Assembly (NCBI GenBank): GCA_016870695.1
Contig: VGAV01000051.1
Span: forward strand, 1 to 10,666
DNA length: 10,666 bases
Direction: 5' to 3'
Origin: Actinomycetota bacterium
GTDB lineage: Bacteria > Actinomycetota > Actinomycetes > Actinomycetales > Microbacteriaceae
Below the pieces are notes generated by a model. It had not been told where the DNA came from. It saw only the letters and a list, made by a program, of their open reading frames with translations, and did no database searches. This document shows, piece after piece, positions 1-10,255 of this stretch (position 1 is the first letter of the stretch; the number at the start of each line of letters is the position of its first letter). The position numbers and the translations under genes were made by a program.

Positions 1-968
1 TCGAGCGCACGAAGCACGAGACGGACGAGGGTCTCCGGCGTGGAGAACAGCATGTCGTTGGTCACTCGAACGATGTGCCAGCCCGCCGCGGCGAGACGCT
101 CGTAACGCTCGATGTCGCGGAACCACTGCCGGGTGTCACTGCGGTGCTGGTCCCCCTCGTATTCCACCCCCACCAACGCCTCGGGATAGGCGAGGTCGAC
201 GCAGGCGACGAACCCGTCGTGGTCGTAGACATCGTGATTCAGCTCCGGCTCGGGCAAACCGCCGTCCAGAAGAATCATTCGAGTCCACGTCTCGCGCCGG
301 GAAGCCGGTCCGGGCCGCACCATCGGAAGCGCCTCACGCAGCGCGACGATGCCCCGTCGCTTGGGAGCGCGCAGCACAGCCGCCTCGAGCTCCTCGATAC
401 TTACGAGCGGCTCACGCAACACCCGTCCGCGGGGGCCCGGCACACGCGGGGCGGTCACCAGGTAGTCCGCGGCGGCGACGAGGTCGAAGGGATGCCGCAC
501 CGTGCCGCCGAGCAGCGCCCACGTCGTCGCGGCACTGGTCAGCGGCATCCCGACGTCGTTCTTGGAGAGGCGCACTCCCGCCGGCCGCAACTGGTGGCCA
601 CGCACCCCGCGCCCCCTCGGTGCGCGCAGGGGCGGCAGGACGGAGACGTGGATGTCCTCGTCCGGCAATGGCGGAAGAGGGATGCCGTACAAGAGCGCGG
701 CGGTCGTATGGGAGAAGAACTGTCCCGGCGCGAGGAGGACCGCGTACTCCTCTGCCCGACGCAGGACTTCGAGCTCTCGTCGTCGCGCCGGGTGCACGTC
801 GTCCGGGTGCTCTCTGGCGAAGGACCGGACCCCATGGAAAGGCCTGATAAACGCCGGCGCGTCCACCTGTCGGCGGGTGAGGCCGCGTAAACGTGCCTGG
901 GCCGTGGTGAACGCACCCACCCGGGTCGACAACCATGCTTCGAAGTCTGCCCACCGGCATCCGTTCAT
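1..968 (-). CDS. DUF559 domain protein with AbiEi-like N-terminus (3' end cut by window edge)
   Basis: The frame is open for 322 codons from ATG 966-968 to the left edge, with no stop seen, so only the last few residues are probably missing. The N-terminus (about residues 15-55) resembles the winged-helix segment of AbiEi-type antitoxin domains. The C-terminus (about 230-322) is a DUF559 domain, related to Vsr-like and PD-(D/E)XK nucleases. Visible motifs are a conserved Asp at 258, VEYEG with Glu269 and Glu271, a QHR triplet at 274-276, an acidic/basic helix near D285-R288, and GWHIVRV at 296-302. Such proteins are common in Microbacteriaceae; most are annotated as DUF559 proteins of unknown role, and nuclease activity is inferred. 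No clear ribosome-binding site precedes the ATG, so the start is tentative. No partner toxin gene is visible. It lies downstream of prfA, separated by a palindromic repeat cluster, and probably has its own transcript. Confidence 0.75.
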   Translation of the reverse strand, partial: MNGCRWADFEAWLSTRVGAFTTAQARLRGLTRRQVDAPAFIRPFHGVRSFAREHPDDVHPARRRELEVLRRAEEYAVLLAPGQFFSHTTAALLYGIPLPPLPDEDIHVSVLPPLRAPRGRGVRGHQLRPAGVRLSKNDVGMPLTSAATTWALLGGTVRHPFDLVAAADYLVTAPRVPGPRGRVLREPLVSIEELEAAVLRAPKRRGIVALREALPMVRPGPASRRETWTRMILLDGGLPEPELNHDVYDHDGFVACVDLAYPEALVGVEYEGDQHRSDTRQWFRDIERYERLAAAGWHIVRVTNDMLFSTPETLVRLVLRAL

Positions 969-1085
969 CCGGGGTTGTTCACAGCCCCGCGGAGCTTTCC
1001 CCAGGTGTCCGGGTACGAATGCGACAAGTCAGGGCGGAGAAGACCCACCCTGGGCGGTGACCGGACAGTGAAGACCCCGGGCGCT

Positions 1086-1140
1086 GACTTGGCGCAGATG
1101 TACACGCAGCCGTCCCCCACACGTACATTTGCGGCAAGTC
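1086..1140. repeat. Palindromic repeat copy 1
   Basis: This is a 55-bp imperfect inverted repeat. The arms at 1086-1103 and 1123-1140 pair at 16 of 18 positions, leaving a 19-base loop. The left arm reads gacttggcgcagatgtac, and the right arm ends in gcggcaagtc. Confidence 0.85.
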
Positions 1141-1168
1141 ACGGCCGAGAACACCCACCCCGGGCGCT

Positions 1169-1223
1169 GACTTGGCGCAGATGTACACGCAGCCGTCCCC
1201 CACACGTGAATTTGCGGCAAGTC
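1169..1223. repeat. Palindromic repeat copy 2
   Basis: This is the second 55-bp unit, identical to copy 1 apart from two adjacent substitutions in the right arm (tga where copy 1 has tac). Those changes break pairing in the inner part of the stem, so this copy has four arm mismatches instead of two. It is the copy nearer to the end of prfA, and would be transcribed first by read-through from that gene. Confidence 0.85.
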
Positions 1224-1280
1224 AGGGGGGAGAAGCCCCACGCGTGAGCGCAGGCCGCGGGCGGGCGGGGAGGGTGAGGG

Positions 1281-2387
1281 TCAGGCGTCGGAGAGGGCGG
1301 CCAGGCGGGCCTCCTCGTCGGCGGTGATCGCCGACTCGATGATCGGCGCGAGTGCGCCGTCCATCACCTGGTCGAGGTTGTACGCCTTGTAGCCGGTGCG
1401 GTGGTCGGCGATGCGGTTCTCGGGGAAGTTGTAGGTGCGGATCCGCTCCGACCGGTCCATGCCGCGGATCTGCGACCGGCGCGCGTCGGCGGCCACCGCG
1501 TCCCGCTCCTCCTGCTGCTTGGCGAGCAGACGGGCGCGCAGCACACGCATGCCCGCCTCGCGGTTCTGCAGCTGCGACTTCTCGTTCTGCATCGACACGA
1601 CGATGCCCGTCGGCACGTGCGTGATGCGGACGGCGGAGTCCGTCGTGTTGACCGACTGCCCGCCCGGTCCGGACGACCGGAAGACGTCGATCTTGAGGTC
1701 GTTCGGGTCGATGGCGATCTCCTCGGGCTCGTCCACCTCGGGGAACACGAGAACGCCGGTGGTCGAGGTGTGGATGCGCCCCTGCGACTCGGTCGCCGGG
1801 ACCCGCTGCACGCGGTGCACCCCGCCCTCGTACTTCAAGTGCGCCCAGACGCCCTGCGCGGGGTCGCTGGACGACCCCTTGATCGCGACCTGGACGTCCT
1901 TGTAGCCGCCGAGGTCGGACTCGTTGCGCTCGAGGAGCTCGGCCTTCCACCCCATGGATGCCGCGTACTGCAGGTACATCCGGAGAAGATCGGCCGCGAA
2001 CAGCGCGCTCTCCGCCCCGCCCTCGCCCGCTTTGATCTCCATGATCACGTCGCGGGCGTCGTCCGGGTCGCGCGGGATCAGCAGCCGCCGCAGACGCTCC
2101 TGCGTCTCGGCGACCCGCTCCTCGAGGGCCGGCACCTCGTCGGCGAACGCCGCGTCCTCGCGCGCGAGCTCGCGAGCGGCATCCAGGTCGTCGGATGCCG
2201 CCCGCCACGCGTCGTGCGCGTGCACGATGCGGTTCAGCTCGGCGTAGCGGCGGTTGACGCGCTTCGCGCGCGCCGCGTCGGCGTGCACCGCCGGGTCGTT
2301 GAGCTCGAGCTCGACCTGCCGGTGCTCTTCGAGCAGTCCGCGGACGGACTCGAGGATGCCGGACTGCTCGGCGGGCTCAGGCGACAC
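1281..2387 (-). CDS. prfA: Peptide chain release factor 1 (RF1)
   Basis: RF1 ends translation at UAA and UAG codons by triggering peptidyl-tRNA hydrolysis on the ribosome. The 368-residue product is close to the family's usual ~360. The GGQ catalytic loop is at residues 242-244 within [12 protein letters not shown]. The stop-codon-reading tripeptide is PAT at 197-199, followed by ESQGRIHTS, which is the RF1 form; RF2 would have SPF there. The N-terminal ~110 residues form the charged helical domain. The start is GTG 2385-2387, three bases after the rho stop, with no good ribosome-binding site, so translation is probably coupled to rho. Residues aligning with family N-termini begin around residue 10 ([10 protein letters not shown]), so the extra residues are tentative. 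The usual next gene, prmC/hemK, which methylates the GGQ glutamine, is not here. Confidence 0.96.
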
Positions 2388-2390
2388 GGG

Positions 2391-4565
2391 TCAGCGGATG
2401 CCGTTGTCGTCGCCGCCGCGCGCGGGCGCCGGGATCGACTTCTGCATCTGCACGAGGAACTCCACGTTCGACTGGGTCTCCTTGAGCTTGCCGAGCACGA
2501 CCTCGAGGGCCTGCTGGGGCTCGAGACCGGCCAGCGCGCGGCGGAGCTTCCAGGTGATCTTGACCTCGTCGTTGGACAGCAGCATCTCCTCGCGGCGGGT
2601 GCTGGACGCGTTGACGTCGACCGCCGGGAAGATGCGCTTGTCCGCGAGCTGGCGGTTCAGGCGCAGCTCGCTGTTGCCGGTGCCCTTGAACTCCTCGAAG
2701 ATGACGTCGTCCATCTTCGAGCCGGTCTCCACCAGCGCGGTCGCGAGGATCGTCAGCGAGCCGCCGTTCTCGATGTTGCGCGCGGCGCCGAAGAAGCGCT
2801 TCGGCGGGTAGAGCGCCGAGGCGTCCACGCCACCGGTCAGCACGCGGCCCGAGGTCGGCGCCGACAGGTTGTACGCGCGGCCGAGACGGGTGATCGAGTC
2901 CAGGAGCACGACGACGTCGCGGCCCAGCTCGACGAGGCGCTTCGCACGCTCGATCGCCAGCTCGGCGACCGTGGTGTGGTCCTCGGCGGGACGGTCGAAC
3001 GTCGAGGCGATGACCTCGCCGCGCACCGTGCGCTGCATGTCGGTGACCTCTTCGGGGCGCTCGTCGACGAGCACGACCATGAGGTGCACCTCGGGGTTGT
3101 TGTGCGCGATGGCGTTCGCGATCTGCTGCAGGACGATCGTCTTGCCGGCCTTCGGCGGCGCGACGATGAGTCCGCGCTGGCCCTTGCCGACCGGGGCGAC
3201 CAGGTCGATGATGCGCTGCGTCAGCTTCTCGGGCGCGGTCTCCAGGCGCAGGCGCTCCTGCGGGTACAGCGGCGTCAGCTTGCCGAACTCGACGCGCGCG
3301 GCGGCGTCGTCGACCGAGAGGCCGTTGATCGAGTCGACCTTGACCAGCGCGTTGTACTTCTGGCGGGTGGACTGCTCGTTCTCTCGCGGCTGCTTGATCG
3401 AGCCGACGACCGCGTCGCCCTTGCGCAGGTTGTACTTCTTCACCTGGCCGAGCGAGACGTAGACGTCGCTGGGACCGGGCAGGTAGCCGGTGGTGCGCAC
3501 GAACGCGTAGTTGTCGAGCACGTCGAGGATGCCGGCGATCGGCACGAGCACGTCGTCCTCGCCGATCTCAGTCTCGAACTCGTCGCCCGTGGTGTTCTGC
3601 CCGCGGCGCTTGTTGCGCTGGCGGTTGCGGCCGTTGGCCTGCTGCTGCTGCGCCTGCTGCGCGCCCTGCTGCGGCGCCTCGGGCTCGTCGGCCTTCTCGG
3701 CCGGCGCGGGCTTCTCGGCCGGCTCCGGCTTGTCGGCGGCGTCGGCCTTGTTCCGGTTGCGGTTGCGCGACCGGCTGCGGCTGCGGCTGCGGGACGGGGC
3801 CTCGTCGGCGCTCTCACCGTTCTCGGGCGTCGCGGCCGGGGCGTCCTCGCCCGCGGCGGCGGGGGTCGCGTCGCCGTCGGTGGTCGTGGCGGTCTCGGCC
3901 TCGGCCTCGGCGGGAGCGGTGGATGCCGCTGCGTCGGGCGTCGCGTCGGCGGAGGTGTCCGCGGCGGCCGGCGTCTCGACCTCGGCAGCGGGCGACTCGA
4001 CGGCGGTCGACGCCTCGTCGGCGGCGGGGGTCGCAGCCTCGGGTGCGGCACCCTCGGCGGGGATCTCGGTGGCCGCGGCGGTCTCGACCGGCGCCTCGGC
4101 GGCGGGGGCCTCCGCAGCGGGCGCCTCGTCGGCGGGCGCGCTCTTGGCCCGGCGGGGCGCACGCTTGCGCGGTGCACGGGCCGGCTTCTTCTCCTCCGCG
4201 GCGGCGGGCTCCTCCGCGGCGGCGGGCTCCTCCGCGGCGGGCGCCTCGGGGGCGGCCTCCGTCACGGGCTCGGCGACGGGCGCCTCGGGGGCGGCCTCCA
4301 CGGCCGTCTCCTCCGCGGCCGGCGCGTCCGCCGCAGCGGACTCCTCGGCAGCGGGCTCCGCCGCAGCGGGCTCCGCGTCCTCGGCCGCGGAGGCCGCGGC
4401 ATCCGTGTCCTGGTCGGCGGGCACCTCGTCGAACAGGGTCGGCTCGGCGGGAGTCTCGTCGGCAGACGTCTCGGTCTGCTCGGCGGCCGCGGCGGGCTGC
4501 TCCTCGGGGGTGGTGTCGGCGCCCTCGGGCGCGTCGACGGGCTGGGTCTCGGAGATGGACTCCAC
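2391..4565 (-). CDS. rho: Transcription termination factor Rho with long disordered N-terminal extension
   Basis: Rho is a hexameric RNA-dependent ATPase/translocase that ends transcription of untranslated RNA. The 724-residue product has a conserved core from about residue 338: an OB/cold-shock RNA-binding domain (to ~420, including GYLPGPSDVYVS), Walker A APPKAGKT at 469-476, DERPEEVTDMQR near 501-512, Walker B VVVLLDSITR with Asp556, the Q-loop LTGGVDASAL (577-585) and the R-loop KGTGN (627-631). Residues 1-337 are Ala/Glu/Pro-rich low complexity. They include a basic patch (KKPARAPRKRAPRRAK, 126-141), an SR/NR run (258-272) and a Gln-rich tract (299-309). I see no Rho_N-like helical domain. 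The start is GTG 4563-4565, with AGGAG five bases upstream. prfA follows after 3 bases. Actinobacterial Rhos often carry inserts or N-terminal extensions; this one is at the long end. Confidence 0.97.
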   Translation of the reverse strand: MESISETQPVDAPEGADTTPEEQPAAAAEQTETSADETPAEPTLFDEVPADQDTDAAASAAEDAEPAAAEPAAEESAAADAPAAEETAVEAAPEAPVAEPVTEAAPEAPAAEEPAAAEEPAAAEEKKPARAPRKRAPRRAKSAPADEAPAAEAPAAEAPVETAAATEIPAEGAAPEAATPAADEASTAVESPAAEVETPAAADTSADATPDAAASTAPAEAEAETATTTDGDATPAAAGEDAPAATPENGESADEAPSRSRSRSRSRNRNRNKADAADKPEPAEKPAPAEKADEPEAPQQGAQQAQQQQANGRNRQRNKRRGQNTTGDEFETEIGEDDVLVPIAGILDVLDNYAFVRTTGYLPGPSDVYVSLGQVKKYNLRKGDAVVGSIKQPRENEQSTRQKYNALVKVDSINGLSVDDAAARVEFGKLTPLYPQERLRLETAPEKLTQRIIDLVAPVGKGQRGLIVAPPKAGKTIVLQQIANAIAHNNPEVHLMVVLVDERPEEVTDMQRTVRGEVIASTFDRPAEDHTTVAELAIERAKRLVELGRDVVVLLDSITRLGRAYNLSAPTSGRVLTGGVDASALYPPKRFFGAARNIENGGSLTILATALVETGSKMDDVIFEEFKGTGNSELRLNRQLADKRIFPAVDVNASSTRREEMLLSNDEVKITWKLRRALAGLEPQQALEVVLGKLKETQSNVEFLVQMQKSIPAPARGGDDNGIR

Positions 4566-4719
4566 GACTGCTCCTCAGAAATGAAACGTGATCAGATCGC
4601 GGGTCGTCGGTGCAGACGGCAGACGAAGACACTCACCAGCGGCTCGGAAGACTGCAGCCGACGCCGGGTTCGCGATTTGTTGCGGATTTCGCGGGGTGCA
4701 GAGGCTCAGATTCGCGTCT
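4566..4719 (-). promoter_or_regulatory. rho 5' leader / thrB-rho intergenic region
   Basis: These 154 bases separate the thrB stop (TAG 4720-4722) from rho and break the otherwise tight operon spacing, so they probably carry rho-specific control. On the minus strand the segment 4578-4629 holds 19 C and 10 G in 52 bases, a C-over-G excess typical of Rho-loading (rut) RNA. A 7-bp direct repeat (gcagacg twice) sits at 4612-4625. I see no intrinsic terminator for thrB, since no GC stem is followed by a T-run. A role in autogenous control of rho is inference. Confidence 0.35.
4571..4575 (-). promoter_or_regulatory. Ribosome-binding site of rho
   Basis: The minus strand reads AGGAG five bases before GTG 4563-4565. 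This is the strongest ribosome-binding site in the window, and it fixes the rho start at that GTG. Confidence 0.75.
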
Positions 4720-5652
4720 CTACGCGGAACCCTCTGCGGTCCTCACTGTACCACCCTTGACGTCGACGGCCAGCATGAGCGCCTCCCACGGGGTGTCGAC
4801 GAGGGATGCCGTAAGATCCGCCGCGGCCAGGCGCTGGCCCGGTCCGTCGGCGAGCACCAGCACGCTCGGCCCCGCACCGGAGACGACCGCCGCGTAGCCC
4901 TCGGCCCGCAGCGCCCGGACCAGCCGGTCCGTCTCGGGCATCGCCTGCGCGCGGTAGTTCTGATGCAGCTTGTCCTCGGTCGCCGCCATGAGCAGCTCGG
5001 GGCTCTGCGTCATCGCCGCGATCAGCAGCGCCGAGCGCGAGACGTTGAACACCGCGTCCTCGCGCGGCACCTGCAGCGGCTGCAGGCTCCGGGCGACGGC
5101 CGTGGACATCGTGAAGCTCGGCACGAGCACGAGCGGGGAGACGCCGCGGTGCACGATCAGCTGCTTGTGCTGCGGGCCGGCGGCATCCATCCACGCGATG
5201 GTCAGGCCGCCGAAGAGGCCCGGCGCCACGTTGTCGGGGTGCCCCTCCATCTCCGTCGCCAGGCGCAGCAGCTCGATGTCGGTCAGCTGCACCTCGTCCG
5301 CGAGCAGGCCTTTCGCGGCGAGGATGCCGGCGACGACGGCGGCGCCGGACGACCCCATCCCCCGGCCGTGCGGGATGACGTTGGTCGCCGAGAGCCGCAG
5401 GCCCGGCATCTCACGGCCCACCGCCGCGTACGTGTGGGCCATGGCCCGTACGACGAGGTGGGAGGCGTCGCGCGGGACGTCCGCCGTGCCCTCGCCGGCG
5501 ACCTCTATCTCGAGGCGACCCGCCTCGAGTGCCTCGACCTCGAGCTCGTCGTACACGCTGAGCGCGAGACCGAGGGTGTCGAAGCCGGGCCCGAGGTTCG
5601 CGCTCGTGGCCGGAACGCGGACGGCGACCCGGCGCCCGAGGGCTTCGGTCAC
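4720..5652 (-). CDS. thrB: Homoserine kinase
   Basis: ThrB is a GHMP-family kinase that phosphorylates L-homoserine with ATP to O-phosphohomoserine, the substrate of ThrC. The product is 310 residues, normal for the family. The N-terminal motif [19 protein letters not shown] begins at residue 13. The glycine/serine phosphate-binding loop [13 protein letters not shown] lies at about 92-105. The C-terminal GHMP motif [10 protein letters not shown] begins at 258. The start is GTG 5650-5652, which overlaps the thrC stop as GTGA, a typical translational-coupling junction. The frame stays open further upstream, but that part lies wholly inside thrC and looks nothing like a kinase, so I set the start at the overlap. 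It is the last gene of the lysine/threonine set; a 154-base leader separates it from rho. Confidence 0.95.
4745..4750 (-). promoter_or_regulatory. Possible -10 element for rho inside the thrB 3' end
   Basis: The minus strand reads TACAGT, which fits the actinobacterial TANNNT -10 pattern, about 180 bases before the rho start. No convincing -35 box is seen at 16-18 bases, so this is a weak candidate. Confidence 0.22.
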
Positions 5653-6731
5653 GCGGTCACCGGCTGCAGGTCGAGCACGGAGGCGACCTCCGACGTCGTG
5701 GCGTCCACGACCGTGGGCTGCACGTCGGTGCCGTCGCTCTGGCGCAGGGCCCACTGAGGGTCCTTCAGGCCGTGACCGGTGACGGTGAGGACGACCTTGG
5801 CGCCGGCGGGGATGACCCCGGCCTCGGCACGGTCCAGCAGACCGGCGACGCTGATCGCGGAGGCGGGCTCGACGAAGACGCCGACCTCGCCCGCGAGGAT
5901 CTTCTGCGCCGCGAGGATGCGCTCGTCGTCGATCGCCCCGAACCAGCCGTCGGTGGCATCCCGGGCCTCGAGCGCCAGGTCCCACGAGGCCGGGTTGCCG
6001 ATGCGGATGGCGCTGGCGATGGTCTCGGGGTTCTTGACGACCTCGCCGCGCACGAGCGGGGCCGAGCCGGCGGCCTGGAACCCGAACATGCGGGGAACCG
6101 TGCGGGCGGCGCCGCGGGCGGCCTCCTCCCGGTAGCCGCGGGAGTAGGCGGTGTAGTTGCCGGCGTTGCCCACGGGGATGAAGTGGAAGTCGGGGGCGTC
6201 GCCCAGGACCTCGACGACCTCGTAGGCGGCGGTCTTCTGACCCTCGATGCGGTCGGGGTTGACCGAGTTGACCAGGTGCACCGGGTAGTGGTCGGCGAGC
6301 TCGCGCGCGATCTCGAGGCAGTCGTCGAAGTTGCCGCGGATCTGGATGAGACGGCCGTTGTGGGCGACGGCCTGGCTCAGCTTGCCCATCGCGATCTTGC
6401 CCTCGGGCACGAGCACGGCGGCGGTGATGCCGGCGTGCGCGGCGTAGGCCGCGGCCGACGCGGAGGTGTTGCCGGTCGAGGCGCAGATGACGGCCTTGGC
6501 GCCGTGCTCGACCGCGCGGGACAGCGCGACGGTCATGCCGCGGTCCTTGAAGGAGCCGGTGGGGTTCATCCCCTCGAACTTCACCCAGACGTCCGCACCG
6601 GTGCGGCGCGAGAGCGCCGGCGCGGGGATGAGGGGCGTACCGCCCTCGCCCAGCGTGACGACGGTGGAGGCGTCGGTGACGCCCAGACGGTCGGCGTATT
6701 CGCGGAGGACTCCGCGCCAGACGTGTGCCAT
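5649..6731 (-). CDS. thrC: Threonine synthase
   Basis: ThrC is a PLP-dependent fold-type II lyase that converts O-phospho-L-homoserine to L-threonine and phosphate. The product is 360 residues, as in the short actinobacterial form without the long N-terminal extension of the E. coli and plant enzymes. The PLP lysine is Lys62 in [11 protein letters not shown]. The substrate/PLP loop STGNTSAS is at 85-92, the phosphate-binding GNAGN at 188-192, and the C-terminal VTGHGLKD at 317-324. The start is ATG 6729-6731, one base after the hom stop, with GGAAGGGAA five bases upstream as ribosome-binding site. Its stop overlaps the thrB start as GTGA. Gene order and coupling put it in the same operon as hom and thrB. 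Confidence 0.96.
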
Positions 6732-6732
6732 G

Positions 6733-8058
6733 TCAGTTCCCTTCCACGCGCAGTACGGAGACCACGCGCTCGACGACGCCGCTTGCGGCGAGACGCTCGA
6801 CGGTCTCGCTCAGGTCCTGCTCGCGGGCTGTGTGCGTTCCGATGACGAGGCGCGCCGATGCGCCCGTCGCGTCCGCGGTCGGCTCGATGACGGTCTGCTC
6901 GACCGTCGCGATCGAGACGCGGCCGTCGCTGAGGATGCCGGCGACCGTGGCGAGCACGCCCGGCTTATCGTCGACCTCGAGCGTGATCTGGTAGCGCGTG
7001 ATGACGCGGCCGATCGGCACGGTCGGCAGATTGGCGCGGGTGGACTCGCCCACGCCGACACCGCCGGCGATGTGGCGACGTGCGGCCGAGACGACGTCGC
7101 CGAGGACCGCCGAGGCGGTCTGGACGCCACCGGCGCCGGCGCCGTAGAACATGAGGTCGCCCGCGGCCTCGGCCTGGACGAAGACGGCGTTGTTCGCGCC
7201 GTGGACGCTGGCGAGCGGGTGGGCGCGGTCGACCAGCGCGGGGTAGACGCGCACCGAGATGGACTCGCCCTCCTCGCCGTCGGCGGCGGAGAGGCGCTCG
7301 CACACGGCGAGCAGCTTGATGACGTAGCCGGCGTGCCGCGCGGACTCGATCATCGCGGCATCCACCGAGGTGATCCCCTCGCGGTGAACCGCCTCGAGCG
7401 GCACGGTCGTGTGGAACGCCAGGCTCGCCAGGATGGCGGCCTTCTGGGCGGCGTCGTAGCCCTCGACGTCGGCGGTGGGGTCGGCCTCGGCGTAGCCGAG
7501 GTCCTGCGCCTGCGCGAGCACGTCGGCGAAGTCCGCGCCCTCGGTGTCCATGCGGTCGAGGATGTAGTTGGTCGTGCCGTTGACGATGCCCATGATGCGC
7601 ACGACCCGGTCGCCGGCGAGCGAGTCGCGCAGCGGACGGATGATGGGGATGGCGCCGGCCGCCGCGGCCTCGTAGTACACCTGCGCGCCGACCTGGTCGG
7701 CGGCGTCGAAGATCTCGGTGCCGTGCGTGGCCAGCAGCGCCTTGTTGGCGGTGACGACGTCGGCGCCGGAGTTGATCGCCTGCAGCACCTGCGTGCGGGC
7801 CGGCTCGATGCCGCCCATCAGCTCGATGACGATGTCCGAGCCGACGATGAGCGTCTCGGCGTCGGTGGTGAACAGCTCGCGCGGCAGGTCGACGTCGCGC
7901 TTGCCGTCGAGGTTGCGGACGGCGATCCCGGACAGCTCGAGCGTGGCTCCGGCGCGGTCGGCGAGCTCGTCGCCGTGCTTGAGGAGCAGGTCGGCGACCT
8001 GCGAGCCCACGGCGCCGGCGCCCAGCAGGGCGACCCGGAGCGTGCGGTAGTCGGTCAT
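6733..8058 (-). CDS. hom: Homoserine dehydrogenase with ACT regulatory domain
   Basis: Hom reduces L-aspartate 4-semialdehyde to L-homoserine with NAD(P)H, the branch point between lysine and threonine/methionine synthesis. The 441-residue product has three parts. The N-terminal Rossmann domain carries GAGAVG at 13-18 and TANKALL with Lys106. The catalytic/dimerisation domain has NGTTNYIL at 160-167 and the signature [20 protein letters not shown] ending at Lys206. An ACT domain lies at about 357-435 ([20 protein letters not shown] onward). In actinobacterial homologues the C-terminal region mediates threonine feedback inhibition, which is expected here but not shown. The start is ATG 8056-8058, overlapping the lysA stop as ATGA, with GGAG seven bases upstream inside lysA. 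It lacks a fused aspartokinase, as is usual in this phylum. Confidence 0.97.
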
Positions 8059-9521
8059 TCGGTGTCTCCGTACGTCGAAGCGGCGAGGCCGCGGAAGGCA
8101 GGCGACGCGGTGGCGTCGCGGGAGTCGGATGCCGCGACCCCGACATCCCGCGCGAGCAGGTCGTCGACGGTCTCGCCGCGGACGATCACACGGGCGCGGC
8201 CGTCGCGCACGGCGACCACGGGCGGGCGGGGGGTGTAGTTGTAGTTGCTCGCGAGCGAGAAGCAGTAGGCGCCGGTGGCGGGGACGCCGAGCAGGTCGCC
8301 GGGCGTGACGTCGCCGGGCAGGTACTCGGCGTCGACGACGATATCGCCGGACTCGCAGTGGTGGCCGACGACGCGGGACAGCGCGGGCGTCGCGTCGCTC
8401 GTGCGCGAGACGATGCGGGCCGAGTAGTGCGCGCCGTAGAGCGCCGTGCGAGCGTTGTCGCTCATGCCCCCGTCGACGCTCACGTAGGCGCGGTCCAGGT
8501 CGTCGCCGACCGGCACGGTCTTGACCGTGCCGACCTCGTAGAGGGTCACCCCGGCCTGGCCGACGATCACGCGCCCGGGCTCGCAGGCGATGTCAGGCAT
8601 CGGGATGCCGCGGACGGCGCACTCGTCGGCGACCGCGTCGACGATGCCGTCGGCGATCTCCTCGATCGGCCGCGGCGCGTCGACGGAGGTGTACGAGATG
8701 CCGAAGCCGCCGCCCACGTTCAGCAGCGGGATGTCTCCCCCGGCGAGCAGCTCCGCGTGCAGGTCGACCAGGCGCGCGGCGGACTCGCGGAAGCCGGCGA
8801 CGTCGAAGATCTGCGAGCCGATGTGGGCATGCAGTCCGACGAAGCGCAGGCTCGGCAGCTCCCGGATGCGCGCGACGGCCGCGGCCGCACCGGCGAGCGG
8901 GAAGCCGAACTTCTGGTCCTCGTGGGCGGTGGCGAGGAACTCGTGCGTCTCGGCGTGCACGCCCGTGCGGACGCGGACGAGCACCGACTGAACGGCGCCG
9001 CGGCGGTCGGCGATGGCGGCGAGCCGCTCGATCTCGATGGCGCTGTCGACGATGATCGTGCCGATGCCGACCTCGACGGCCCGCTCGAGCTCGTCGACCC
9101 GCTTGTTGTTGCCGTGGAACCCGAGGCGGGCCGGGTCGGCCCCGGCGGCCAGCGCCACCTCGAGCTCTCCCCGGGTGCACACGTCGACGGCCAGGCCCTC
9201 GTCGGCGACCCAGCGGACGACCTCGGTCGAGAGGAAGGCCTTGCCGGCGTAGTAAACGCGCGCCGACACGCCGTGGCGGGCGGCCGCGGACGAGAAGGCC
9301 TCCCGGGCCCGTCGCGCGTGCGCGCGCACCTCGTCCTCGTCGAGCACGTAGAGCGGGGTGCCGAAGCAGTCGCGCAGGTCGAGGACGGAGACCCCGCCGA
9401 TCTCGACGGAGCCGTCGTCGACGCGATGCGCGGACGCGGGCCACACGGGGGCGACGAGCTCGTTGGCCTCGGCCGGGGCGAGGAGCCACGCGGGCACGGG
9501 CGCGGAGTGCGAGGCGGACAC
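8055..9521 (-). CDS. lysA: Diaminopimelate decarboxylase
   Basis: LysA is a fold-type III PLP enzyme that decarboxylates meso-diaminopimelate to L-lysine, the last step of lysine synthesis. From GTG 9519-9521 the product is 488 residues. The PLP lysine is Lys94 in VYYAGKAF. Then come HGNNK, the HAHIGSQIF segment, the phosphate-binding GGGFG at 270-274, CEPGR, and CESGD with catalytic Cys389 from the partner subunit, followed by GAYCFSLASNYNY. The start is uncertain: in-frame GTGs at 9566 and 9575 also exist, and none of the three has a proper ribosome-binding site. I chose 9521 because homologues align from about PAWLLAP, and the extra 18 residues from 9575 look unlike the family. The gene heads the operon and ends in an ATGA overlap with hom. 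In M. tuberculosis argS precedes lysA; here it does not. Confidence 0.95.
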   Translation of the reverse strand: MSASHSAPVPAWLLAPAEANELVAPVWPASAHRVDDGSVEIGGVSVLDLRDCFGTPLYVLDEDEVRAHARRAREAFSSAAARHGVSARVYYAGKAFLSTEVVRWVADEGLAVDVCTRGELEVALAAGADPARLGFHGNNKRVDELERAVEVGIGTIIVDSAIEIERLAAIADRRGAVQSVLVRVRTGVHAETHEFLATAHEDQKFGFPLAGAAAAVARIRELPSLRFVGLHAHIGSQIFDVAGFRESAARLVDLHAELLAGGDIPLLNVGGGFGISYTSVDAPRPIEEIADGIVDAVADECAVRGIPMPDIACEPGRVIVGQAGVTLYEVGTVKTVPVGDDLDRAYVSVDGGMSDNARTALYGAHYSARIVSRTSDATPALSRVVGHHCESGDIVVDAEYLPGDVTPGDLLGVPATGAYCFSLASNYNYTPRPPVVAVRDGRARVIVRGETVDDLLARDVGVAASDSRDATASPAFRGLAASTYGDTE

Positions 9522-9590
9522 GGAGGGACCAATCGGTTTTGCGGCGACGCGACGGCCGCGGATCACGGCACCCACCCCCGCGGGGCGTCA

Positions 9591-9658
9591 CGCGGCGGGC
9601 AGTCCTTGCAGTCTAGGGCACGACGTATGCCGTCCCGGTCCCGCGTCTGCCCGCCGCG
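9591..9658. repeat. 12-bp perfect inverted repeat around the lysA promoter
   Basis: The arm cgcggcgggcag (9591-9602) is matched exactly by ctgcccgccgcg (9647-9658), with 44 bases between them that contain the TAGACT element. One arm lies upstream of the -10 and the other just past the predicted transcription start. It could be paired operator half-sites or a long-loop stem ending transcription from the upstream remnant gene. There is no T-run. The rest of the 147-base gap (9522-9668) shows nothing else I can name. Confidence 0.6.
9610..9615 (-). promoter_or_regulatory. Candidate -10 element for the lysA operon
   Basis: The minus strand reads TAGACT, a good match to actinobacterial TANNNT -10 boxes. 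It would start transcription near 9603, about 80 bases before the chosen lysA start. No clear -35 box is present. It sits inside the loop of a 12-bp inverted repeat. Confidence 0.4.
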
Positions 9659-9668
9659 GACCGGCGCG

Positions 9669-10255
9669 TCAGACCTCGAAGCGCCCGTCGCGGACCACCA
9701 GGGTCTGCGGGGTGGAGGAGAGCGTGCCGGAGCGCTCGCTGTTCTGCCACACCCGGACCCGGCTCGGCTCCTGCGCCTCCACGACGAGCCGGTAGCCGTC
9801 GCCGACCGCCGTCCCGTCGAGGGCGGTGACGAGCTTGTCGTGCGTGTCGTCGCCGTTCACGGTCACCGTCCGCAGCTCGGTGCCGTCGGCATCCTGGACC
9901 GTGATCTTGTAATACGGCTTGCCCGTGAAGTACTCGTGCAGCACCTCGCCGGTGGAGGTGGCGACGAGGCGCGAGCCGTCGCGGCTGATGCCGAGCCGCG
10001 CCCGGTGGGCTGGGGGTCGCTGTGCGAGAAGGCCCGGTTCTCGAGGCCGCTCGTCGCGCTCTGGCTGCCGTGGGGCAGCGCGATCACCCGGGTCGACGCA
10101 CCCGTGTCGTCGTGCACCACGACGGCGGGCTCGCGGATCTCGAAGGCCGTGACCGCGCCGCCGGACGCCGAGCTGACGCTCAGGGTGCCGGAGGCGGCGG
10201 CGGCGCCGCTCCGCACGCGCATCGTGGTGCGGTACCGTCCCTCGCTGTCCGTCAC
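9669..10255 (-). pseudogene. Frameshifted remnant: Ig-like segment plus putative mucin/carbohydrate-binding module
   Basis: Two minus-strand frames read as parts of one protein. The upstream frame, from 10255 to about 10005, has a bacterial Ig-like look (SGVTDSEGRYRTTMRV, then TLSVSSASGGAVTAFEI) and runs to AFSHSDPQ. The downstream frame takes over as RLGISRDGSRLVATSTGEV, HEYFTGKPYYKITVQDADG and YRLVVEAQEPSRVRVW, and ends at TGA 9669-9671. The second part resembles the PF03272-type module found in enhancin/M60-like secreted proteins. The frames join at a G5 run (10012-10016): one extra base would give a smooth SDPPAHRARLGISRDG. Protein-like sequence continues upstream of GTG 10255 to the end of the DUF2993 gene, with no signal peptide and no start, so the N-terminus also seems lost. 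The domain call is from memory of motifs and is moderately sure. A sequencing error at the run is possible. Confidence 0.6.

What the first reader, a model, noticed from the sequence alone, without database searches (positions are those of the whole stretch)
490..9894. Highly iterated octamer GGATGCCG, 20 copies in 10.7 kb, written into codon choice
The word GGATGCC (either strand) starts at 490, 544, 680, 956, 1956, 2178, 2193, 2354, 2396, 3527, 3921, 4398, 4804, 5182, 5322, 5955, 6933, 7357, 8127, 8603 and 9888. All but the one at 5955 extend to GGATGCCG. At ~70% GC I estimate 2-3 heptamers and about one octamer by chance on both strands. Copies lie in DUF559, prfA, rho, thrB, hom, lysA and the remnant (thrC carries only the heptamer), but not in the palindrome cluster or the DUF2993 end. 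In several genes they use less-favoured codons: Asp-Ala as GAT GCC (prfA, rho, thrB, hom) and Ala-Ser as GCA TCC (prfA, rho, lysA). In prfA I found only two in-frame GAT codons, one of them in this word. This suggests selection or a biochemical process acting on the DNA word itself, as with cyanobacterial HIP1, Chi or KOPS-like signals, or a methyltransferase target. Orientation is 13 plus-strand to 8 minus-strand.
Basis: partly seen in the sequence, partly recalled or inferred. Interest (0 to 1): 0.75.

Follow-up and report, generated by a model that had tools for sequence, protein, structure and literature searches.

The report
Self-marking DNA word in Microbacterium
A Microbacterium genome is peppered with thousands of copies of one eight-letter DNA word that relatives replace by their own different word; it looks like a 'same species' tag for taking up DNA, although uptake itself has not been tested.

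Summary
GGATGCCG occurs 20 times in the window (0.95 expected) and 2,559 times in its 3.19-Mb draft genome, a Microbacterium. It is not codon preference: synonymous shuffles give a fraction of the copies, and its codons are conserved inside the word far more than outside. There is no replication-strand bias (254 leading, 285 lagging), unlike Chi or KOPS. Of 139 genomes of the order outside the family none exceeds 267 copies per Mb; the family reaches 1,320.

The main new finding is dialects: relatives have other dominant words, such as GGATGCCR, GGATGCGG, CGGATCC, GGAGGCGC and, in M. mitrae, CGGAACCA (2,917 copies, against 62-126 in 10 other genomes). Four of five variant labels in Microbacterium form single clades.

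Non-palindromic, strand-neutral, about one per kilobase, mismatch-graded and dialect-forming, it matches DNA uptake sequences. comEC is in 43 of 43 family genomes and tad pilus genes are common, but a pre-stated pilus rule failed in 5 of 26 genomes. Eight of nine phages have few copies, one does not. A conserved DNA methyltransferase is the main rival lead.

The parts
490..497 (+). copy of GGATGCCG (antisense in DUF559 ORF)
543..550 (-). copy of GGATGCCG (sense in DUF559 ORF)
680..687 (+). copy of GGATGCCG (antisense in DUF559 ORF)
955..962 (-). copy of GGATGCCG (sense in DUF559 ORF)
1956..1963 (+). copy in prfA, codons GCG GCA TCC
2177..2184 (-). copy in prfA, codons CTG GAT GCC GCT
2193..2200 (+). 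copy in prfA, codons GCG GCA TCC
2354..2361 (+). copy in prfA, codons GGC ATC
2396..2403 (+). copy in rho, codons GGC ATC
3527..3534 (+). copy in rho, codons GGC ATC
3921..3928 (+). copy in rho, codons GCG GCA TCC
4397..4404 (-). copy in rho, codons ACG GAT GCC GCG
4804..4811 (+). copy in thrB, codons ACG GCA TCC
5181..5188 (-). copy in thrB, codons ATG GAT GCC GCC
5322..5329 (+). copy in thrB, codons GGC ATC
5954..5961 (-). GGATGCCA in thrC; a full copy of this clade's GGATGCCR dialect
6933..6940 (+). copy in hom, codons GGC ATC
7356..7363 (-). copy in hom, codons GTG GAT GCC GCG
8127..8134 (+). copy in lysA, codons GCG GCA TCC
8603..8610 (+). copy in lysA, codons GGC ATC

Best explanation
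GGATGCCR is a DNA-uptake-sequence-like self tag of this Microbacterium clade. SHOWN: the word is iterated about once per kilobase across the sampled genomes, on both strands, in coding and non-coding DNA, far beyond composition and codon choice; its codons are conserved among genomes with the same dialect and not in others; close relatives have other dominant words, counted genome-wide for CGGAACCA. INFERRED: a surface DNA receptor, most simply a pilin or pseudopilin of the tad (Flp) competence pilus, binds the word; DNA carrying it is taken up preferentially, passes through ComEC and recombines; this biased uptake drives the word to accumulate wherever protein coding tolerates it (molecular drive) and keeps foreign DNA out; when the receptor's specificity shifts, the genome follows, which makes the dialects. 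The receptor is not identified and uptake has not been tested.
For: Density: 2559 per 3.19 Mb in the own genome, 4491 per 3.4 Mb in G106; Neisseriaceae DUS have 943 to 5918 copies per genome (PMC3630211, section read). Codon nulls: G106 sample sense 265 against 40, antisense 225 against 68 after synonymous shuffling; 93 and 120 with amino-acid triplet context kept. Density outside called genes (edge overlaps counted there) 1.52/kb, inside 1.33/kb in G106; 0.63 and 0.84 in the own genome. No strand bias, near-random spacing (CV 1.1). Over-representation falls with mismatch load (G106 8.9, 1.4, 1.05, 1.03, 1.0), as PMC1939737 reports for uptake sequences (passages). Dialects, scores 3.4-9.7 against a largest value of 2.47 in 24 shuffled sets; all but one borderline case hold GGA, as Neisseriaceae dialects share CTG; in Microbacterium labels form clades. 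Word swap at the same sites: GGATGCGG-dialect loci hold GGATGCGG in 262 of 2003 aligned pairs at GGATGCCG sites, their commonest word there. In-word GAT GCC kept in 1949 of 2692 pairs against 196 of 986 outside. comEC in 43 of 43 family genomes, also one of 0.9 Mb. Two tad loci resemble the two that Micrococcus luteus, of the same order, needs for transformation (PMC4322843, passages). Microbacterium acquired a free plasmid in sludge (PMC10257627, passages).
Against: No uptake experiment. The rule written down before the run, that genomes with at most one T2SSF gene have under 300 GGATGCCG per Mb, failed in 5 of 26 (G003, G007, G019, G043, G115), though the association is there (Fisher p 0.003, not corrected for kinship). 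G005 has a strong word and no T2SSF match. Genomes with two or more T2SSF matches but no detectable word: G030, G059, G033, G016, G067, G074. As a plain 8-mer the word is only modestly conserved (0.339 against 0.259 background; control words 0.06-0.45). Phages: eight of nine have 0.07-0.33 copies per kb, but Efeko has 13 in 17.5 kb, 0.74/kb. The GGATGCGG-dialect genome G344 still holds 1855 GGATGCCG, and GGATGCGG was counted only at the locus. Copies are not arranged as inverted pairs. A conserved methyltransferase is an alternative partner.
Confidence: 0.58

Rival explanations
1. HIP1-like: the word is the target of an orphan DNA methyltransferase and is kept for a role of the methylated site (repair, replication or nucleoid).
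For: A small beta-class methyltransferase (61-86% identity for all pairs of 20 fetched but one, 95%) gives a strong PF01555 match (E below 2e-38) in 18 of 18 word-bearing genomes looked at, and only weaker matches in the word-less G051 and G121. All clear dialect words hold GGA, i.e. a constant adenine. In M. mitrae and its sister the enzyme differs at residues otherwise constant in the alignment and has other neighbours than in most Microbacterium. HIP1 is linked to orphan methyltransferases (PMC4390886, start of abstract and passages).
Against: Word-less G024, G014 and G017 have equally strong matches, and those of G024 and G017 are as similar as the others. G152 and G060, with the standard word, have enzymes among the nearest to that of M. 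mitrae (70%). The GGATCC-dialect genomes G034 and G004 keep the constant residues. An 8-bp non-palindromic target would be long for a small enzyme (recalled).
Confidence: 0.17
2. Chi-like recombination hotspot, its word changing with the recombinase.
For: Short, non-palindromic, strongly over-represented, clade-specific; Chi words differ between bacteria (recalled).
Against: No leading-strand bias: 254 leading, 285 lagging over 20 stretches of G106 with dnaA at the contig start, whereas known Chi sites are mostly biased to the leading strand (recalled). Enriched on both gene strands.
Confidence: 0.08
3. Binding site of an abundant chromosome-organising protein, selected for its own sake.
For: Genome-wide, both strands, inside and outside genes; low in eight of nine phages.
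Against: Spacing is close to random (CV 1.1). Replacement of thousands of sites by another word within one genus would be costly for a structural site.
Confidence: 0.1
4. Codon or codon-pair preference, or a mutational bias, without any reader of the word.
For: Most copies sit in codon frames that the proteome allows (Asp-Ala, Gly-Ile, Ala-Ser); density falls in the most codon-biased genes; one phage, Efeko, is rich in the word.
Against: Exceeds the largest of 100 shuffles of each of three kinds, sense and antisense, and is frequent outside genes. GGACGCCG, which deamination would consume, is not depleted: 111 against 101 expected in G000, 141 against 106 in G106 (order-3 model). Eight of nine phages are low.
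Confidence: 0.04

Closest known systems
DNA uptake sequences (DUS) of Neisseriaceae and uptake signal sequences (USS) of Pasteurellaceae
   Same: Non-palindromic word of about 8-10 bp, thousands of copies, no orientation bias, mismatch gradient, dialects with a shared core inside one family and clade-consistent dialects, competence gene comEC present.
   Different: High-GC Gram-positive host (recalled); no receptor known, and the T4P gene pilM is absent from the strong word-bearers G106, G277 and G142; shorter word without an extended flank; not arranged as inverted pairs; uptake not tested.
HIP1 (GCGATCGC) of cyanobacteria
   Same: Iterated octamer, genome-wide; possible orphan methyltransferase partner.
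   Different: HIP1 is a palindrome with one word; here not a palindrome, and many words in one family.
Chi sites
   Same: Short clade-specific non-palindromic over-represented word (recalled).
   Different: No replication-strand bias.
KOPS / AIMS
   Same: Octamers over-represented in chromosomes (recalled).
   Different: Those are polarised towards the terminus (recalled); no polarity here.

Membership tests
DNA uptake sequence (DUS/USS) | Preferential uptake or transformation of DNA carrying the word | not testable with these tools
   Needs a transformation or uptake assay.
DNA uptake sequence (DUS/USS) | Strong genome-wide over-representation | tested here: met
   2559 copies in the own genome against 191 of the reversed word (that word holds TAG, so it is a low baseline); 248 against 37 by an order-2 model in 309 kb.
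[quoted passage not shown]
   254 leading, 285 lagging in G106, 400 kb sampled, terminus assumed half-way. One genome tested.
DNA uptake sequence (DUS/USS) | Over-representation declines with mismatch load | tested here: met
   G106 and G000 decline smoothly; the CGGAACCA pair has 25.3, 1.39, 0.83; in G034 only the exact word is raised.
DNA uptake sequence (DUS/USS) | Dialects that follow the species tree | tested here: met
   10 changes for 7 labels on 81 Hom rows, shuffled mean 30.3. 49 rows carry the default label, among them L103 (ACGGATGC) and weak ones; L078 and L099 were too short to be typed.
DNA uptake sequence (DUS/USS) | Competence machinery present | tested here: inconclusive
   comEC 43 of 43; tad genes associated but with 5 of 26 exceptions and G005.
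DNA uptake sequence (DUS/USS) | Dedicated surface receptor (ComP-like) | not tested
   Nothing beyond pilM, T2SSF and a look at tad loci.
Chi | Leading-strand bias (recalled) | tested here: not met
KOPS/AIMS | Polarity towards the terminus (recalled) | tested here: not met
HIP1 | Palindromic octamer | tested here: not met
   GGATGCCG is not its own reverse complement; of the dialects only those built on GGATCC hold a palindrome.
HIP1 | Orphan methyltransferase that modifies the word | tested here: inconclusive
   A conserved methyltransferase exists, its target is unknown.

The most novel reading that the evidence does not exclude
Microbacteriaceae run a sequence-tagged self-DNA uptake system, the first in Gram-positive bacteria as far as the papers I saw go: a tad-pilus and ComEC route with a receptor whose specificity shifts, and thousands of genomic words that follow it, giving one dialect per clade (GGATGCCG, GGATGCCR, GGATGCGG, GGATGCTG, CGGATCC, GGAGGCGC, CGGAACCA and others around a constant GGA).
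Probability: 0.5. Interest if true: 0.92.

Novelty: new variant of a known kind. Interest (0 to 1): 0.8.

Why it matters
In the papers I saw, sequence-specific DNA uptake is described for Pasteurellaceae and Neisseriaceae (passages). Library searches that combine uptake-sequence or competence terms with Actinobacteria, Microbacterium or Gram-positive terms (no paper; 3, 2 and 14 papers, judged from listings, and from passages or sections of five of them) showed no such word for Actinobacteria, and a search for the word itself found five papers, judged unrelated from their listings. Most subscription papers and all bioRxiv preprints are missing from that library. If real, tagged self-DNA uptake arose separately in Gram-positives with another pilus, and the old question of why cells prefer their own DNA becomes testable in a family with many natural dialects, including a switch inside one genus. 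It could also help to transform the genus.

Tried and rejected
Codon preference: rejected by three kinds of shuffles, the first kind again on the window. Deamination of GGACGCCG: that neighbour is not depleted. Chi, KOPS, AIMS: strand symmetry. Type IV pilus as the general machine: pilM in 23 of 56 genomes and absent from G106, G277, G142. Rule 'at most one T2SSF, no enrichment': written before the run, not met. T2SSF counts differ between two runs for G010 (3, 2) and G013 (2, 1); one search uses those and leaves out G000 and G196. Eco57I-type methyltransferase: 11 of 23, no pattern. Plasmid search with a chromosomal stretch: six records with weak matches, at least one annotated as rho, led nowhere. 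Markov screens alone gave codon artefacts such as AGCAGCA, hence the sense-and-antisense score (null); with 20 kb that score misses known words (G142, G060, G149). G015 could not be judged (4.6 kb called coding). Depletion of the word in codon-atypical genes was not seen. Receptor: not identified.
Full report
WHAT IS THERE. GGATGCCG occurs 20 times in the 10,666-base window, 0.95 expected, and GGATGCC 21 times, 1.82 expected. In the seven main window genes (names supported by Pfam), 19 copies stand against a mean of 3.9 after shuffling synonymous codons within each gene (largest of 1000 shuffles 9). Beyond the octamer the 21 heptamer copies show no strong common flank. The window lies in a draft genome (G000, 3,189,298 bases in 654 contigs, 88% complete) with 1285 forward and 1274 reverse copies, against 100 and 91 of the reversed word; the reversed word contains TAG and is a low baseline, so I rely on the Markov and codon nulls below. 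The best named relatives of the hom product are Microbacterium (94%), and the window groups with 15 rows, several of them M. testaceum (support 100/98).

NOT CODON CHOICE. In 309 kb of the own genome (20 stretches plus the window) the heptamer is followed by G 248, A 107, T 29, C 14 times, with 37, 11, 14 and 19 expected by an order-2 model, so the word of this clade is GGATGCCR. In a complete relative of the same genus, G106 (one contig of 3,371,690 bases), it is GGATGCCG: 4491 of 4674 GGATGCCR. With genes called by a simple codon-usage script, synonymous shuffling gave for GGATGCCG in G000 16 sense and 44 antisense against 98 and 120 observed; in G106 40 and 68 against 265 and 225. Shuffles that keep neighbouring bases, or the amino-acid triplet context, also fell short (G106: 51/100 and 93/120; 100 shuffles each). 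Density outside called genes (copies overlapping an edge counted there) is 1.52/kb and inside 1.33/kb in G106; 0.63 and 0.84 in G000.

ARRANGEMENT. In G106 dnaA and dnaN lie at the start of the contig. Over 20 evenly placed 20-kb stretches, 254 copies are on the leading and 285 on the lagging strand, taking the terminus as half-way. Spacing is near random (coefficient of variation 1.12 in both genomes), and close inverted pairs are not in obvious excess. Over-representation falls steeply with mismatches: 8.9, 1.4, 1.05, 1.03, 1.0 for loads 0 to 4 in G106; 6.8, 1.35, 1.1, 1.05, 1.0 in G000. GGACGCCG, from which deamination would make the word, is not depleted. The word is rarer in the most codon-biased genes (0.67 and 0.88/kb in the top two deciles against 1.1-2.2 in the other eight) and not depleted in the most atypical decile (1.36/kb). 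A resolvase-bearing stretch of 4.7 kb in G106 has no copy.

WHO HAS IT. All 199 genomes of the family search have matches, from 27 to about 1,320 per Mb. Among 139 genomes of the order outside the family the ratio to the reversed word runs from 0.86 to 5.5, and 8.0 in one (G263); the median is 2.1 and the highest density 267 per Mb. Nine phage records (8 of Microbacterium, 1 of Curtobacterium; 353 kb) hold 72 copies, 0.20/kb, against 22 of the control. Eight have 0.07-0.33/kb; Efeko, a phage of M. paraoxydans, has 13 in 17.5 kb (0.74/kb). The actual hosts were not measured; two other Microbacterium genomes in the same call, M. saccharophilum and M. elymi, have 1.1-1.2/kb.

DIALECTS. Twenty-kilobase stretches of other genera already showed other dominant words. 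Among 79 sequences of at least 9 kb at the syntenic hom locus (81 less two short ones), most have GGATGCCG; the window's group has GGATGCCR; L116, L136, L137, L142 have GGATGCCN; L095, L106, L109 GGATGCGG (26, 21, 20 against 2.2, 1.5, 2.4); L083, L084 GGATGCTG (12 against 0.7); L138 (M. mitrae) and L144 CGGAACCA (32 and 23 against about 1); some, such as L114, L127, L135, L146 and L148, have no clear word. Genome-wide, CGGAACCA has 2917 copies in M. mitrae and 2372 in the L144 genome, against 62-126 in the ten others searched, and GGATGCCG has 254 in M. mitrae. The L109 genome (G344), of the GGATGCGG kind, still has 1855 GGATGCCG in 4.4 Mb; GGATGCGG was not counted genome-wide. I also scored words by the weaker of their sense and antisense excess over context-keeping codon shuffles; 24 shuffled data sets from eight genomes gave a largest value of 2.47. 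Scores: GGATGCCG 9.7 (four stretches of G106) and 5.9 (G152), CGGATGCG 5.1 (G026), GGATGCG 4.7 (G020), CGGATGC 5.2 (G102), GGATGCC 3.8 (G057), GGATGCGG 3.7 (G346), GGATGCTG 3.6 (G348), GGATGACC 3.9 (G042), AGGATCC 7.6 (G004), CGGATCC 9.6 (G034), GGATCCG 4.0 (G164), GCAGGATC 3.4 (G047), GGAGGCGC 3.8 (G035), GGAGGCG 3.6 (G055), CGGAACCA 5.6 and 5.1, AGCGGAT 6.2 (G005); G010 has borderline words without GGA (ATCGGTG 3.6, CATCGGTG 3.3). No clear word, 1.8 to 2.7: G121, G051, G024, G014, G017, G013, G030, G059, G033, G016, G045, G074, G067; G073 reached 2.5 with GGATGCG. In single 20-kb stretches known words can be missed (G142, G060, G149). On a tree of 81 Hom proteins, seven labels need 10 changes (shuffled mean 30.3); GGATGCCR, GGATGCGG, GGATGCTG and CGGAACCA are each one side of a well-supported branch, and M. 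mitrae lies among GGATGCCG-bearing and low rows. L078 and L099 were not typed and carry default labels there, and L103 (ACGGATGC) was left under the default.

CONSERVATION. In a codon-matched test over all called genes at the locus (60 strong loci), GAT GCC inside the word was kept in 1949 of 2692 pairs (324 sites) and outside it in 196 of 986 (191 sites), in blocks of 74-79% identity; GCA TCC in 293 of 661 and 193 of 688. In genomes of other dialects the in-word codons are not kept: GGATGCGG dialect GAT GCC 47 of 343 (outside 14 of 97) and GCA TCC 1 of 60 (12 of 60); GGATGCTG GAT GCC 0 of 93 (5 of 114) but GCA TCC 5 of 27 (6 of 43); CGGAACCA GCA TCC 0 of 30 (0 of 12), no usable in-word GAT GCC site (an earlier run on six genes agrees in the main). 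Pairs are not independent; per genome, with blocks up to 80% identity, in-word exceeded out-of-word in 41 of 45. Taken as a plain 8-mer the word is only modestly conserved (0.339, background 0.259, control words 0.06 to 0.45). At GGATGCCG sites, GGATGCGG-dialect loci carry GGATGCGG in 262 of 2003 aligned pairs (GGATGCCG 163, gaps 169) and GGATGCTG-dialect loci GGATGCTG in 162 of 1709 (GGATGCCG 158), each the commonest word; CGGAACCA is not among the commonest words there in its dialect's loci.

MACHINERY. comEC (PF03772) is present in 43 of 43 family genomes, the own one included. pilM is in 23 of 56 genomes and missing from strong word-bearers. There are two tad loci: one with TadA and two adjacent T2SSF genes, and in G277 TadE and Tad-type genes and a short Flp-like ORF without Pfam match, near a VTT-domain gene and, in G106, ligD; and one with TadA and a single T2SSF gene by the topoisomerase I and thymidylate kinase genes. 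Micrococcus luteus, of the same order, has such a pair, tad-1 and a tad-2 with fused TadB/C; both are needed for transformation, with tadB only largely so (PMC4322843, passages only). Five word-less genomes have only one T2SSF match. I then wrote down a rule and ran it on the family sample: of 178 genomes at least 90% complete, 77 of 152 with two or more T2SSF matches and 5 of 26 with at most one reach 300 GGATGCCG per Mb (Fisher p 0.003; none of the 20 genomes at 700 per Mb or more has at most one); the strict rule failed in G003, G007, G019, G043, G115. GGATGCCG density ignores other dialects, so this test is crude. G005 has a word and no T2SSF match; G030, G059, G033, G016, G067 and G074 have two or more and no word found.

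RIVAL LEAD. A beta-class methyltransferase (nearest solved relatives include RsrI and CcrM) gives a strong match in 18 of 18 word-bearing genomes and in word-less G024, G014, G017; G051 and G121 have only weaker matches. Of 20 fetched, all pairs but one are 61-86% identical. The M. mitrae and L144 enzymes (95% identical) differ at positions otherwise constant in the alignment. G152 and G060, with the standard word, are among their nearest relatives, so enzyme and word do not match simply.

LITERATURE. Neisseriaceae DUS: eight dialects, 943 to 5918 copies per genome, common CTG core (PMC3630211, abstract and section 'DUS dialects'). Uptake-enhancing sequences show no orientation bias, an excess in non-coding DNA and a mismatch gradient (PMC1939737, passages). 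HIP1 (PMC4390886, start of abstract and passages). Microbacterium acquiring a free plasmid (PMC10257627, passages).

CONCLUSION. The word is real, at high density family-specific in my samples, and read by something that changes between relatives. The sequence-level features of uptake sequences that I tested were met, the machinery link is suggestive but incomplete, and the defining feature, biased uptake, is untested. I therefore say that it works most likely like a DUS, and do not file it as one.

Noticed in passing
L257:2174-3061, L261:2406-3305 and 18 further loci L258-L276: Conserved small DNA methyltransferase in the family, in 10 of 20 fetched loci near a 350-aa lipoyl-ligase-like gene; in M. 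mitrae it has other neighbours and changed residues.
   Followed up: partly
L250:1-4700 and 6201-9075: In G106 the tadA-tadB-tadC genes are followed by a resolvase-bearing stretch without any copy of the word; no flp/tadE part like that of G277 was called in the fetched 14 kb.
   Followed up: partly
L127 (Microbacterium marinilacus): 12 copies each of AGTGCCAT and CCATATG in 21 kb plus long C runs, as if a dispersed repeat were present; GGATGCCG is low there.
   Followed up: no
several loci listed: CGATCG-containing heptamers are under-represented in many of these genomes (for example CGATCGA 10-14 against about 30-40 expected).
   Followed up: no
G034, G004, G047, G164: Dialects built on the palindrome GGATCC or its part (CGGATCC, AGGATCC, GCAGGATC, GGATCCG) in three other genera and one genome of the window's genus.
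   Followed up: partly
G010 (L150, L210, L230): Borderline iterated words ATCGGTG and CATCGGTG, without GGA, in a 1.4-Mb genome (scores 3.6 and 3.3).
   Followed up: no
G015, 0.9 Mb: Strongly reduced family genome that still keeps comEC and four T2SSF matches.
   Followed up: no
W08 = NC_052941 (phage Efeko): The one phage rich in GGATGCCG: 13 in 17.5 kb, control 1.
   Followed up: no
window 3-968 and 9669-9944: The DUF559 ORF also resembles the REase_MTES_1575 family (below its cut-off); the short ORF near 9.8 kb has a mucin/carbohydrate-binding domain.
   Followed up: no
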